This document shows positions 58,062 through 62,812 of a DNA stretch of 62,812 nucleotides, in pieces. The translations under genes and the position numbers were made by a program. The notes below the pieces were generated by a model, which had not been told where the DNA came from, ran no database searches, and saw nothing but the letters and a program-made list of their open reading frames with translations. Origin of the DNA: Thermoleophilia bacterium (lineage in GTDB: Bacteria > Actinomycetota > Thermoleophilia > Gaiellales > Gaiellaceae). Each line of letters opens with the position of its first letter. Position 1 is the first letter of the stretch. The DNA lies in assembly GCA_009694305.1 (NCBI GenBank), contig SHVL01000006.1:1-62812 (forward strand). Direction: 5' to 3'.

Positions 58062-60571
58062 TCAGGACCGGGCGCCGTCGCGCGCGGCTTGCGCCTCGGC
58101 GGCAAGTCGCGCGACCACGGCGACGAGTTCCGAGGGGCGGAAGGGCTTGTGGAGCATTCCGATCCCGCTCGCGGCGCCTACGGCGCGGAGCGGCACGTCG
58201 TACCCCGACATCAGCACCGCCCGCGCATGAGGCAGTACGCCCCGCAACTCGAACACCAACGCGTCGCCACGCCCGTCGGGCAACCCCACGTCCGCGACAA
58301 TGACATCGATCTCGTCGCCAAACTGCGCTACGACCGACTGCGCCTCGGCGAAACCTGCGGCCGAGACGACGTTGAAGCCGGCACGGGTGAGCGCGGCCCG
58401 GAGCACGCGCTCAGCTGCCTCGACGTCTTCGACGAGCAGCACGAGCCCGGTACGAGCGAGTCCCTGGACCTCGGCCGGGGTAGGTACGCGCAATGCCCGT
58501 TCCTGCGATTCTCCCGAGCGCTCGAGTGCGGGGAGAGCGATCGTCACCGTCGTTCCGTGCCCCTCCGTGCTCTCAACCCAGGCACTGCCTCCCGCAGCGC
58601 GTGCGCCGCCGTAAACCGCAGCGAGTCCGAGTCCCGCCCACCCACCTTCGTCGTGAAGAACGGCTCGAAGACGTGGCGGACATCGTCCGCACTCATTCCC
58701 GCACCGGTGTCGGTTCCCGTGAGCAGGACGTACAGACCGGGGGCAATGTCTCGCTCGTGCGCTTCAGCGCCGACAAACGCTGCTGCGTGGGTCGCGAGGG
58801 TGAACGTGCCGCCGAGGGGCATCGCCGCGCGCGCGTTCACGGCGAGGTTGAACACGCAGCGCTTGAGCTCCAGCCGGTCGTATGAGGCTGGGGGGCAAGC
58901 ATCGTCGGATACGCAATCGACCTTCACGTCTTCGCCCAAAAGCCCCTGCACGACGCGCACGAGGTGTCTCACCTCCTCGCCGATGTCGAGGGGCGTCGGG
59001 TCGAGCCGCAGGCGCCGGGCCACGAGCATCAGTTCCGCAGTCAACTCAGCAGCGCCCTCGACCGCTGCGGCGATCTCGTCGAGATCCGCGGCGATCTCCG
59101 CCCCGACGCCGAGCTTCGCGCGAGCGCCCTCCGCCAGGCCGCCGATCACGAGCAGAGCGTTGTTGAAGTCGTGCGCGATCCCGGCGACGAGCCGTCCCGT
59201 CGCCTCGAGCCTTCTGGCGTCCTCAAGCAAGGCCCGCGTTCGGGCCTCCGCCGTAACGTCGTCGATGAGCAAGACGAGGCCACCGTCACTACGTGTCGCG
59301 AACGCGACTATGATCTCAAGCGGCCCACCGGACCGGTCACGCAGGGGATATGTGCGCCGCAGCAAGGGATCTCCCGCCACTGCTCGACCGAAGACGTCGA
59401 GCATCTCGTCCCCACCCGCCTCCACCAGGAAGTCGGCGAGTCCGCGGCCTCGAACCTCGTCCGCGGCGTATCCGAACAGATGCGCCGCCCCCTCGTTCCA
59501 GTGGCTGATCTCATGCTCTGAGTTCGTCTCGATCACGGCGTCTGATGCCTCGGTGAGGAGCGCCTGACGCATCGCGAGCTCTGAGTCGCGCCTTGCGAGC
59601 AGCAGCCTGCTGAGCCGCCGGTCACGGCTGAACAGCAAGGCGACAATGACCAGCGCGGTGCTCAGAGCGCTGCCGAGGCCGAGCAGCAGCACCGGGTGAT
59701 GCTTCGGGTCGCCGTCCGTGAACGACGCGCGCGCGCAGGACGAGCGTGTAGTCAGCGACCGGTGCGGAGAGCTGCACGATCGCGATCCGCGGCCCGGCCA
59801 CGGACGCCGCCGCGACCAGGTCGTCCGCTCCCTCCGTGCCAACGAGGAGTGAGCCATCGGCGCGCGTAATCGCGAGGTCGATCTGCGTGCCCAGCGGCCC
59901 GAGCGCCAGGTCCGAGAAGCGAGCGTGATTGACAACAGCGATCACGATTCCCCGCAACGAGGCCGCCCCAGCTCCGGGGGCCGCCCCGACTTTGAACTCG
60001 GGGTACCACACGGTGAACACGTCTGGGCCACGCTGGGACAACAGCACGCCGAGCACCACGGGGCGTCGCGTGCGCACGACTTCCTTGATGACAGCGGCGG
60101 TCGAGGGCAGACCGTTCCCATCGATCCCGATCGTTCCGGCGTGGAACGGCTCCGTGTTCGCGACCGGGAAGTAGAAGGGGCGCGGTCGAGCGGAGCGGAG
60201 CCCGGTCATCGCGAGGGAAAGGCGTTCGGTGATCCCTGCCGACGCGATGCCCTCAGCGCGCCGCCGCGCTTCGAGCGCGGCCCGGTCAGCGTGGGCCACG
60301 TAGGGGACCCAGTTGAGCGCGAGCGTCGTCGCGGTCGGGCGCAACCGGAAAGCCTCAGTGAACTCAGCGGGGGACGGGTCGGGGTTCGCCAGCGTGAACA
60401 CCGCGATCCCCGCAGAGGTGGTCGCCAGTTCCCTGAACTCGGCCTCGACCGCCGCAGCTCGTCCTCGTAGCTCCGCTCGAGCACCGAAGCACCGGCGCCC
60501 GACAATCCGAACCCCAATAGGCCCAAAACAATCGCCGGGGCGAGAGCCCGGAGACGCCGACCGTTCGGCAC
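58062..60571 (-). pseudogene. CHASE-PAS-histidine kinase-receiver hybrid gene with three frame changes
   Basis: Starts at GTG 60569-60571 with a strong AGGAGGTAA ribosome site: TM helix and CHASE sensor (VLERSYEDELR | AVEAEFRELATTSAG ... FRLRPTATTLALNWVPY), second TM (PVLLLGLGSALSTALVIVALLF), PAS (ASDAVIETNSEHEISHWNEGAAHLFGY), H-box (ATGRLVAGIAHDFNNALLVIGG), ATPase (VFNLAVNARAAMP, TGAGMSADDVRHVFEPFFTTKVGG | GLGLAAVYGGARAAGG) and a receiver (VLLVEDVEAAERVLRAAL, VIVADVGLPDGRGD, MLHKPFRPSEL). The frame changes near 60470, about 59735 (in a GC-dinucleotide run) and about 58637. All domains are recognisable, so decay is recent or these are sequencing errors. Confidence 0.82.
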
Positions 60572-60667: not shown

Positions 60668-60740
60668 GGGCCGTTAGCTCAGCTGGTAGAGCAGGGGACT
60701 TTTAATCCCAAGGTCGCTGGTTCGAGCCCAGCACGGCCCA
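60668..60740 (+). tRNA. tRNA-Lys (anticodon TTT)
   Basis: Acceptor GGGCCGT/ACGGCCC with discriminator A, D-arm GCTCAGCTGGTAGAGC, anticodon loop CTTTTAA (TTT), T-arm GCTGG-TTCGAGC-CCAGC. CCA not encoded. Its 3' end borders less GC-rich DNA with a recombinase gene, so it is a likely integration site. Confidence 0.95.
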
Positions 60741-60789
60741 TATTGGGGGTAGCGGACATGAGGAAACCCAGTGTTTATGCGGGTTCGTG

Positions 60790-60816
60790 TCTGCGATATC
60801 TGCGGTTTCTGCGGTC
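60790..60816. repeat. Three tandem 9-bp repeats near the tRNA-Lys 3' end
   Basis: TCTGCGATA, TCTGCGGTT and TCTGCGGTC stand head to tail, followed within 5 bp by GTGTTGCAccgGTGTTGCA, another direct repeat. They lie 50-100 bp from tRNA-Lys in a 189-bp non-coding gap (60741-60929). Candidate arm-type recombinase-binding sites; no gene is seen in the gap. Confidence 0.5.
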
Positions 60817-60929
60817 CCGTGTTGCACCGGTGTTGCATTGGGAAATCGAACGGGGCGCCTTGTTGCCATCGTGGGCACCACGAAACGTGCTGCGCGGCGA
60901 CCCGCAAAACGTGACCATCAGAACGAGAC

Positions 60930-61943
60930 TCAACGGAACAGCACTAGGGGGGTGTCCGACTTGCGACCGCCGCGGCGCGCAGCTTCGGCCGGCGAGACGG
61001 GGGGTATTCCGCGGTCGGCTGCTGCTCTCGCGTCTTCGGGATTGCTCAACCCCTCGATAACCTCCGAGGCATCGTCGATGACACGGACGTGCCCTTGGTA
61101 CTTGGCCTCGAACTCGCGCGCCCACTTAAACTTATCGACGAGGCTGCGGACGAACCAGACTCGCCTCCCCTGCTCCGCCGCGATCCGCGCCTGCATCCGC
61201 GCACCACTCGTGCGGGTTGCTTCAACGACGACCGACCCCTGGGCTAGTCCACTCATGACGACGTTCCGCATTGGGAATGTGGCCGGAGTCGGTGGCGTGT
61301 CCGGTCGGAACTGCGAGACGACAGCACCTTCCGCCACGATCCTTTCCGCCAAACTTCGGTTTTCCTTCGGGTAGTAGGGCCTGAGCAGGCCGTGCCCGAC
61401 CACGGCGATGGTTCGGCCACCAGCGTCGAGCGCGCCGCTGTGCGCGGCTGTATCAATCCCCTTCGCGAGGCCCGAGTAGACGGTTACACCCGCCTCCGCG
61501 AGGTCCCGTCCTAGTTTGTGCGCCCGTGCGGCACCCTCGTTGCTCGGATGCCGGCTGCCGATGACGGCCACTCCCTTCGCATCCACTTCAAGGAGGTGAC
61601 CACGCATCACGAGGAAGGGCGGGGGGTTGAAGACCGACCGCAGCGCAACTGGATACTCGCGATCCAGGATGGTCACGAAGCGCAGCGTGGGGTCATCCCG
61701 CCGCCACAACGCTACCTTCTCTTGCCAGTTCATCACGGCGTCCAAAGTGAGTCCATGGTTGAGTGCAACGGCGACGTCGTTCTCCCAGCGATCGGAGGGA
61801 TCCCACGGGCCGTCGAGGAGTGCATGAGCCGACCCCAGGCGATCTACTACACGGGCGATCTGCCACCACGGGACGCGGCCCGCCTGAACTACCTCGCACG
61901 CGGCGAGGATCACGGAGAGCTCGCGATGCTGCGCTGCCGTCAC
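60930..61943 (-). CDS. DprA/Smf-like Rossmann-fold protein in putative integrated element
   Basis: 337 aa from GTG 61941-61943. The DprA core is clear: VAVIGSRHPSNEGAARAHKLGRDLAEAG, VYSGLAKGIDTAAHSGALDAGGRTIAVVGHG, YYPKENRSLAERIVAEGAVVSQF, FPMRNVVMSGLAQGSVVVEATRTSGARMQARIAAEQGRRVWFV. The N-terminal ~130 residues are a different, charged, Trp-rich domain (VAVALNHGLTLDAVMNWQEKVALW), and the usual C-terminal winged helix is replaced by a region with FKWAREFEAKYQGHVRVIDDASEVIEGL. It overlaps the ComF-like gene by GTGA. DprA normally loads RecA on transforming DNA; this accessory copy may act in defence or element biology. Confidence 0.8.
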   Translation of the reverse strand: MTAAQHRELSVILAACEVVQAGRVPWWQIARVVDRLGSAHALLDGPWDPSDRWENDVAVALNHGLTLDAVMNWQEKVALWRRDDPTLRFVTILDREYPVALRSVFNPPPFLVMRGHLLEVDAKGVAVIGSRHPSNEGAARAHKLGRDLAEAGVTVYSGLAKGIDTAAHSGALDAGGRTIAVVGHGLLRPYYPKENRSLAERIVAEGAVVSQFRPDTPPTPATFPMRNVVMSGLAQGSVVVEATRTSGARMQARIAAEQGRRVWFVRSLVDKFKWAREFEAKYQGHVRVIDDASEVIEGLSNPEDARAAADRGIPPVSPAEAARRGGRKSDTPLVLFR

Positions 61944-62659
61944 TTGACCGCCTTGCTGTAGATCTCCATTGCGATATTTGACTGAGTAAAATAACGAGCG
62001 TAGACCACGGCGCTGACGGACTCGGCGCCCGCGGCAAGGACAGCACGAGCTGCGTCGAAGATGGTGTGACCAGTTGTGTACACGTCGTCGATGAGAAGAA
62101 CGTGCCTCAGTCCGAGATCGACATTGCACTCATACTTCCCCTGTGCGGCCTCACGGCGCTCCGGGAGGGAGAGGCCGGTTTGATGCGGCCTGCTGGAATC
62201 CGCCGTGAGTCCCTCGATCACGGTCGGTCTGGGCCAATCCTTCTGAGCGCCCCACGCTTCAGCGCAGCGACTCATCAGTCCCGAGCGCGATGGGATCAAG
62301 ATGGCAACGAACTGTTCGTCGCTAGTGAAGAACCGCGGGAAGCTCACTTCTGCAGCAAGCGATGTTGACGCCGCGATTGACCTGACTGCTCCATCCAGGA
62401 CCTCTGGCGGAACTCTTTTGAACTTCGCGTCGAGAAGCAAGTCCCACGCGGGGGTGCCTTTGACAGCGTAGGTGGCGGCAGCGAACCCCTCAAGAATACG
62501 GGGATGTTGAGGGTAGCACGGGTGGCACTCACGATACGCGCGCTTGTCAGGGGGCAGCGGCGTCAGGCAGTGAGTGCAGGCCGCTGGCGGCTCCAGGGGT
62601 GGCCGCACGCGATCTTGCGCGATCAGCAAGTCGAGCATCTCTTTCCTGTCGTCGGCCAC
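61940..62659 (-). CDS. ComF-like phosphoribosyltransferase in putative integrated element
   Basis: 239 aa. N-terminal zinc-knuckle CTHCLTPLPPDKRAYRECHPCYP, central linker, and the type I PRTase signature HVLLIDDVYTTGHTIFDAARAVLAAGA (PRPP-binding DDVYTTG). Closely resembles ComF, the PRTase-fold competence protein, but the body between residues 60 and 160 looks unlike the housekeeping protein. Start ATG 62657-62659. Translationally coupled with the DprA-like gene. The two-gene pairing of competence-type proteins inside an element is notable; enzymatic activity and substrate are unknown. Confidence 0.78.
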   Translation of the reverse strand: MADDRKEMLDLLIAQDRVRPPLEPPAACTHCLTPLPPDKRAYRECHPCYPQHPRILEGFAAATYAVKGTPAWDLLLDAKFKRVPPEVLDGAVRSIAASTSLAAEVSFPRFFTSDEQFVAILIPSRSGLMSRCAEAWGAQKDWPRPTVIEGLTADSSRPHQTGLSLPERREAAQGKYECNVDLGLRHVLLIDDVYTTGHTIFDAARAVLAAGAESVSAVVYARYFTQSNIAMEIYSKAVK

Positions 62660-62675
62660 TGGAGCTTCCCGCCCG

Positions 62676-62812
62676 TCACCGTTCGCGGCCGAGGAGCGCC
62701 GCGTAGTCGAGTTCCGTTTCGTCCGCGAGAACGTGGGTGTAGGTGTTCGCGGTCGTCGCGATGTCGGTCTGTCCGACGTGTTCCCCGATGCGCGCCCACG
62801 GGACGCCGCGAA
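62676..62812 (-). CDS. Tyrosine recombinase/integrase, C-terminal part (runs off window)
   Basis: The last 45 codons of a phage-type integrase, cut by the window end. Reads VPWARIGEHVGQTDIATTANTYTHVLADETELDYAALLGRER: the GEHVGQTDIATT box corresponds to the usual LGHssisTT, and the Tyr in TANTYTHVL is the catalytic nucleophile. Ends 16 bp before the ComF-like gene on the same strand and faces tRNA-Lys, as expected for an integrase beside its attachment site. Confidence 0.85.
   Translation of the reverse strand, partial: RGVPWARIGEHVGQTDIATTANTYTHVLADETELDYAALLGRER

What the first reader, a model, noticed from the sequence alone, without database searches (positions are those of the whole stretch)
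60668..62812. Integrated element at tRNA-Lys carrying a coupled DprA-like/ComF-like pair: candidate defence or mobility module
Immediately 3' of tRNA-Lys the base composition drops, tandem 9-bp repeats appear, and a tyrosine recombinase faces the tRNA. The cargo so far is a ComF-like phosphoribosyltransferase overlapping a DprA-like protein whose N- and C-terminal domains are not those of housekeeping DprA. Competence proteins repurposed on an integrative element suggest sensing or processing of foreign single-stranded DNA. I recall proposals linking DprA-like and PRTase proteins to immunity but cannot verify them here.
Basis: partly seen in the sequence, partly recalled or inferred. Interest (0 to 1): 0.68.

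Follow-up and report, generated by a model that had tools for sequence, protein, structure and literature searches.

The report
Reversed DprA–PRTase toxin–antitoxin beside integrase
Next to a tRNA-Lys gene, behind the end of an integrase gene, lies a two-gene cassette (a phosphoribosyltransferase overlapping a DprA-like protein) that belongs to a known kind of anti-phage toxin–antitoxin pair, but with the genes in the opposite order to all 132 comparable pairs examined.

Summary
tRNA-Lys(UUU) 60668-60740 is followed by low-GC DNA with three 9-bp repeats and a 20-bp direct repeat, then dprA-like (60930-61943, 337 aa, not the 399-aa ORF), PRTase (61940-62659; stop and start overlap as GTGA) and the last 44 codons of a tyrosine integrase, cut by the contig end at 62812. 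All three genes are on the minus strand. It is not housekeeping: the genome has its own dprA (C96) and comF (C29), and the pair is missing in all six congeners. The DprA falls, with 100/100 support, in a PRTase-linked clade that also holds the P2-phage type shown elsewhere to protect against T7 and lambda; it carries that clade's residues (Q251, W274) instead of the housekeeping ones (T, G). Best reading: a ShosTA-like toxin (PRTase)/antitoxin (DprA) defence module carried as integrase-linked cargo. The novelty is the order: PRTase first here, dprA first in 132 of 132 others. The PRTase is deep-branching; whether it is closer to ComF or to paired PRTases cannot be resolved. Mobility is supported by att-like arms shared with contigs C86 and C92, but the second att site is not linked and no empty site was seen. 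New variant of a known kind.

The parts
60668..60740 (+). tRNA-Lys (UUU), presumed integration target
   Evidence: ARAGORN
60726..60741 (+). putative att core (tRNA 3' end, GCCCAGCACGGCCCAT); its CAGCACGGCCCAT occurs in only one other place in the genome, C86
60778..60838 (+). putative arm region: TGCGGGTTCGTGTCTGCG, three 9-bp TCTGCGNNN repeats (60790-60816) and direct repeat GTGTTGCACCGGTGTTGCAT (60819-60838)
   Evidence: like sequences flank cores on C86 and C92
60930..61943 (-). dprA-like gene, 337 aa, PRTase-linked DprA clade, predicted antitoxin
61940..62659 (-). ComF/ShosT-like phosphoribosyltransferase, 239 aa, one four-cysteine zinc-ribbon-like motif and PRPP loop LIDDVYTTG, predicted toxin
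62676..62812 (-). C-terminal 44 codons plus stop of a tyrosine integrase, cut by the contig end
   Evidence: full-length relatives match phage integrase

Best explanation
A DprA-PRTase toxin-antitoxin/abortive-defence module of the ShosTA kind, in reversed order (toxin first), carried as cargo between an integrase gene and the tRNA-Lys end of an integrative element. Proposed working: int, PRTase and dprA are transcribed together towards the tRNA, and the antitoxin is translationally coupled to the toxin by the GTGA overlap (inferred from anatomy). The PRTase, with an intact PRPP loop, is the toxin and would disturb PRPP/nucleotide pools; the DprA-like protein restrains or counteracts it. Disturbance of DNA metabolism by an incoming phage, or loss of the element, would release the toxin, stopping phage production and favouring cells that keep the element. 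Shown here: gene content, overlap, clade membership of DprA, fold class of the PRTase, absence in relatives, att-like arms. Inferred: co-transcription, toxicity, neutralisation, trigger, mobility.
For: DprA in the PRTase-linked clade with 100/100 support, apart from topA-linked housekeeping DprA. Q251 and W274 are invariant in 39 paired DprAs (window included) where 13 of 13 housekeeping DprAs have T and G. Two bands of profile scores in the class: 265 bits or more against 214 or less; window 403. Top PRTase structure matches are ComF (Z 9.4) and ShosT with PRPP (Z 9.0), then 8.7 (ShosT) and 7.2 for the next family. Separate housekeeping dprA and comF. Pair patchy: 2 of 103 family genomes. Such pairs on Gordonia phages Vasanti and Bosnia, Burkholderia phage Mana, Rhodococcus and Embleya plasmids. 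Published phage defence by a DprA-PRTase pair and antitoxin role of DprA homologues (PMC9122126); ShosT activity (PMC12593503). Integrase relatives have att cores just beyond the int stop, in two cases with toxin-like genes between.
Against: Gene order is reversed against all 132 others. The PRTase is only 17-29% identical to others and its placement is unresolved. The PADLOC ShosA hit is not diagnostic: the genome's housekeeping DprA scores 199 bits against 207 for the window. In the integrase relatives int lies at the tRNA-fragment side of the core; here it lies at the full-tRNA side. No experiment.
Confidence: 0.7

Rival explanations
1. A decayed or domesticated remnant: the element lost its far end, and the pair is a passenger with no current defence role.
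For: The integrase is seen only as a 44-codon end; C92 carries a decayed relative with split integrase pieces; the contig breaks inside int.
Against: Both cargo ORFs are intact, overlap properly, and keep the PRPP loop, all four cysteines and the DprA clade residues. The integrase end is intact in frame to its stop.
Confidence: 0.15
2. Not a toxin-antitoxin pair but a ComF/DprA pair aiding uptake or recombination of single-stranded DNA for the element or host.
For: The PRTase is as close to ComF (22-29% identity, mostly 27-29%) as to anything; p-AU 0.238 for a joint clade with ComF; ComF is the top structure match.
Against: The DprA is not of the housekeeping/competence clade; housekeeping copies exist elsewhere; the other paired genes do not sit with competence machinery in the contexts read, apart from a CoiA-annotated gene near the Embleya pair.
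Confidence: 0.1
3. The pair is a chromosomal defence module that merely lies near a tRNA and an unrelated integrase fragment.
For: In cellular genomes paired loci are not enriched for integrases within 8 kb.
Against: Only 16 bases separate the int stop (62676-62678) from the PRTase start at 62659, all three genes are on one strand, and att-like arms separate dprA from the tRNA.
Confidence: 0.12

Closest known systems
ShosTA (ShosT PRTase toxin / ShosA DprA-like antitoxin), with PsyrTA and RqlHI as cousins
   Same: A DprA-like protein of the same PRTase-linked kind beside a PRPP-loop PRTase; PRTase model matches ShosT-PRPP at Z 9.0.
   Different: ShosT of the solved structures is 432 aa against 239 here; remote in sequence; order PRTase first here; the two scores to PADLOC models are far below those of a P2-type pair (207 and 23 bits against 323 and 141 for phage Mana).
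DprA-PRTase pair of the P2-like phage hotspot (PMC9122126; here Burkholderia phage Mana, a Peduoviridae, as example)
   Same: Two genes, DprA clade, on an integrating element.
   Different: dprA first; proteobacterial PRTase without the zinc-ribbon cysteines seen here.
Actinobacterial DprA-PRTase pairs on Gordonia phages Vasanti and Bosnia and a Rhodococcus plasmid
   Same: Nearest in architecture: four-cysteine zinc-ribbon motif plus PRTase; on phages with integrase genes in the same region.
   Different: dprA first; DprA 35-39% and PRTase 17-22% identical to the window's.
Housekeeping DprA and ComF
   Same: Domain families PF02481 and Pribosyltran/ComF.
   Different: Separate copies exist in this genome (C96, C29); DprA in a different clade; no topA neighbour.

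Membership tests
DprA-PRTase (ShosTA-kind) toxin-antitoxin defence | DprA-like partner of the PRTase-linked clade, not the housekeeping clade | tested here: met
   Tree support 100/100; clade residues Q251 and W274
DprA-PRTase (ShosTA-kind) toxin-antitoxin defence | Adjacent PRTase with intact PRPP loop | tested here: met
   LIDDVYTTG; GTGA overlap; structure matches ComF and ShosT
DprA-PRTase (ShosTA-kind) toxin-antitoxin defence | Gene order dprA then PRTase (usual in this survey, not a formal requirement) | tested here: not met
   132 others dprA first, window PRTase first
DprA-PRTase (ShosTA-kind) toxin-antitoxin defence | Discriminating score to curated ShosA/ShosT profiles | tested here: inconclusive
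   Housekeeping DprA scores nearly the same as the window's on ShosA; ShosT 23 bits over the PRPP loop only
DprA-PRTase (ShosTA-kind) toxin-antitoxin defence | PRTase shares ancestry with the paired PRTases rather than ComF | tested here: inconclusive
   With actinobacterial paired PRTases at 92/79; with ComF not rejected, p-AU 0.238
DprA-PRTase (ShosTA-kind) toxin-antitoxin defence | Toxicity, neutralisation and phage protection | not testable with these tools
   Needs bench work
Housekeeping dprA/comF | The only copies of the genome, topA-linked DprA clade | tested here: not met
   C96 and C29 copies; tree
tRNA-targeted integrative element | Tyrosine integrase gene | tested here: inconclusive
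   C-terminal 44 codons only; 66-79% identity to integrases of seven family genomes
tRNA-targeted integrative element | att core duplicated at the far end (attL/attR) | tested here: inconclusive
   A 15-base match to the tRNA 3' end with family-type arm on C86, not linked to C17
tRNA-targeted integrative element | Empty site in a close relative | tested here: inconclusive
   tRNA-Lys found in congeners but flanks not syntenic; G005 has another integrase there

The most novel reading that the evidence does not exclude
The pair arose by partner exchange: a ComF-like PRTase was recruited upstream of a DprA antitoxin of the paired clade, on an integrase-linked cargo site, giving a toxin-first module formed independently of all the dprA-first pairs. 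The int-to-att interval of this integrase family would then be a general docking place for toxin-antitoxin cargo.
Probability: 0.25. Interest if true: 0.5.

Novelty: new variant of a known kind. Interest (0 to 1): 0.38.

Why it matters
It extends DprA–PRTase toxin–antitoxin systems to a deep branch with reversed gene order, gives residue markers (Q251, W274 in place of T, G) that tell antitoxin DprAs from housekeeping ones where a library profile does not, and suggests that an integrase family carries toxin-like cargo between the int stop and the att site.

Tried and rejected
Housekeeping copies: rejected. PADLOC ShosA hit as proof: rejected after the control with the genome's own housekeeping DprA. 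Partner exchange of the PRTase: neither shown nor excluded. General integrase linkage of such pairs in cellular genomes: not found. Extension past the contig end: no overlapping contig, and no contig carries the missing part of this integrase recognisably. Relatives of the PRTase in viral contigs (by short peptide patterns) and plasmids (tblastn): no match. Literature searches for the primary ShosTA mechanism paper found only a review.

Full report
What is there. The window is the whole of contig C17 (62,812 bases) of a 2.47-Mb assembly in 98 contigs. tRNA-Lys(UUU) lies at 60668-60740 on the plus strand. Behind it come 190 bases of GC 0.58 with three TCTGCG units at 9-bp spacing and the direct repeat GTGTTGCACCGGTGTTGCAT. 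Then, all on the minus strand, come a dprA-like gene, a PRTase gene and the end of a tyrosine integrase. The triple repeat is not found in 100 shuffles, and the GC of 60930-62812 (0.640) is lower than that of any of 120 windows of equal length.

Gene calls. The GTG at 61943 overlaps the PRTase stop as GTGA, has AAGGCGG before it, and gives 337 aa. The integrase frame ends at stop 62676-62678 with ...ARIGEHVGQTDIATTANTYTHVLADETELDYAALLGRER; 16 bases further the PRTase can start (GTG 62659; ATG 62638 is an alternative). The order along the coding strand is therefore int, PRTase, dprA, then the tRNA end.

Not housekeeping. A second PF02481 gene lies on C96 and a standard ComF on C29 (L011:964-1626). 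No congener has the pair, and a profile of paired DprAs finds it in 2 of 103 genomes of the family, this one included. In 399 genomes of the class, scores fall into two bands, 265 bits or more (paired) and 214 or less (housekeeping); the window scores 403.

Which DprA. In a tree of 52 DprAs the window protein falls with 38 PRTase-linked ones, 100/100, against 13 housekeeping ones, linked mostly to topA. All paired ones have Q at position 251 and W at 274 where the 13 housekeeping ones have T and G; Q211 replaces E in nearly all, and the arginine after RN is lost. The model (pLDDT 88.8) has a helical N-terminus, the Rossmann domain and a disordered tail; among its best matches are DprA 3uqz and ShosA of E. 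coli APEC O1, 8zva.

Which PRTase. The protein has four cysteines of a zinc-ribbon-like motif, a conserved lysine, PS, and the PRPP loop. Against local profiles it scores 65.8 bits for actinobacterial paired PRTases over nearly its full length and 56.1 for ComF. Pairwise identity is 27-29% to most ComFs of relatives (22% to the genome's own) and 17-24% to the paired ones aligned. One tree puts it between the two groups, another with the paired ones at 92/79, and a joint clade with ComF is not rejected, p-AU 0.238. The model (pLDDT 73) matches ComF at Z 9.4 and ShosT with PRPP at Z 9.0, ahead of other families at 7.2 and below. So it is a ComF/ShosT-type PRTase whose exact ancestry is open.

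Gene order. Among loci from GTDB genomes, class genomes and IMG/VR, 132 have the PRTase downstream of dprA on the same strand; only the window has it upstream. The pairs with long PRTases and the phage and plasmid pairs read by annotation are dprA-first too. The window order is unlikely to be an assembly join, as stop and start share bases.

Library control. PADLOC calls the window DprA ShosA at 207 bits, but the housekeeping DprA of the same genome gets 199, while the DprA of Burkholderia phage Mana gets 323 and its PRTase 141. The library hit alone is therefore not evidence of defence; the clade and residues are.

The element. The last 13 bases of the 16-base tRNA end at 60726-60741 recur once in the genome, on C86; there 15 bases match the tRNA end. 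The bases before that core on C86 (GGTGTTGCACCGGTGTTGCAT ... CATTTGCAGGGATGTTC) match in layout those that stand between int and a tRNA 3' fragment in relatives G032, G034, G038, G080 and G025. C92 has the same arm, a degenerate core and a broken integrase. C86 also has a window-like arm after the core, as at a junction of two elements. None of this joins C86 to C17.

Cargo place. Integrases 66-79% identical over the last ~40 residues occur in seven family genomes. Beyond the int stop the att core follows after about 50-90 bases in G032, G034 and G025 (G025 is a more distant integrase, 48%), but after about 800 bases with a Fic/Doc gene and a ribbon-helix-helix gene in G038 (C84), and 1.76 kb with a GNAT acetyltransferase in G080; G038 (C25) has about 620 bases with no recognised gene. 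In these the core beside int is the tRNA fragment; in the window int faces the complete tRNA, so the layout is not the same. The likeness of cargo place is suggestive only. Integrase linkage of dprA–PRTase pairs is not general in cellular genomes (3 of 39 against 5 of 41 control loci), though many IMG/VR contigs and several named phages carry such pairs.

Mechanism. A DprA–PRTase pair from the P2 hotspot protects E. coli against T7 and lambda, and DprA homologues are the antitoxins of shosTA, syrTA and rqlHI (PMC9122126). A review reports that ShosT is a phosphoribosyltransferase and pyrophosphatase that disturbs purine metabolism and DNA, that ShosA binds DNA and counteracts it, and that T7 Gp0.7 is a trigger (PMC12593503); another paper lists ShosTA among systems activated by a phage single-stranded-DNA-binding protein (PMC10732053). 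ShosTA calls are among the commoner defence calls in actinobacterial prophages (PMC10023795). By homology the window pair should be a toxin (PRTase) and antitoxin (DprA) that acts by abortive infection or stabilises the element. No step of this was tested for the window proteins.

Verdict. A real, non-housekeeping, probably mobile toxin–antitoxin/defence pair of a known kind, with a reversed order not seen in any of 132 comparable pairs.

Noticed in passing
contig C86:29478-29663 (L014:9478-9663): A tRNA-Lys 3' end (15 bases) without the tRNA, flanked on both sides by att-like arms, beside a pentapeptide-repeat gene; candidate far end of the element or junction of two elements.
   Followed up: partly
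contig C92 (L065:6236-10805): Decayed relative: integrase C-terminus next to a degenerate att core and the same arm, then a Schlafen-group-3 helicase gene and a second truncated integrase at the contig end.
   Followed up: partly
L311 (G038 C84:1-3139), L314 (G080 C77): Toxin-like genes (Fic/Doc with ribbon-helix-helix partner; GNAT acetyltransferase) between the int stop and the tRNA-fragment att core of related integrases.
   Followed up: partly
L059 (G005 C19:45869-46714) and L056 (G005 C60:12144-12188): In a congener tRNA-Lys(UUU) has another integrase beside it, and a 45-base copy of the tRNA 3' half lies on another contig: the same tRNA seems to serve a different element.
   Followed up: partly
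window 58062-60571, minus strand: One CHASE-PAS-histidine kinase-receiver gene appears split by two frame changes (near 59.7 kb and 58.6 kb): pseudogene or assembly errors.
   Followed up: partly
paired DprA family (alignments A1, A5): Position 251 Q and 274 W versus T and G separate PRTase-linked from housekeeping DprA without exception in 52 sequences; PADLOC's ShosA profile does not separate them well.
   Followed up: yes
L185 (Embleya plasmid): A dprA-comF-type pair lies about 2 kb from a gene annotated as competence protein CoiA and near a restriction endonuclease gene.
   Followed up: no
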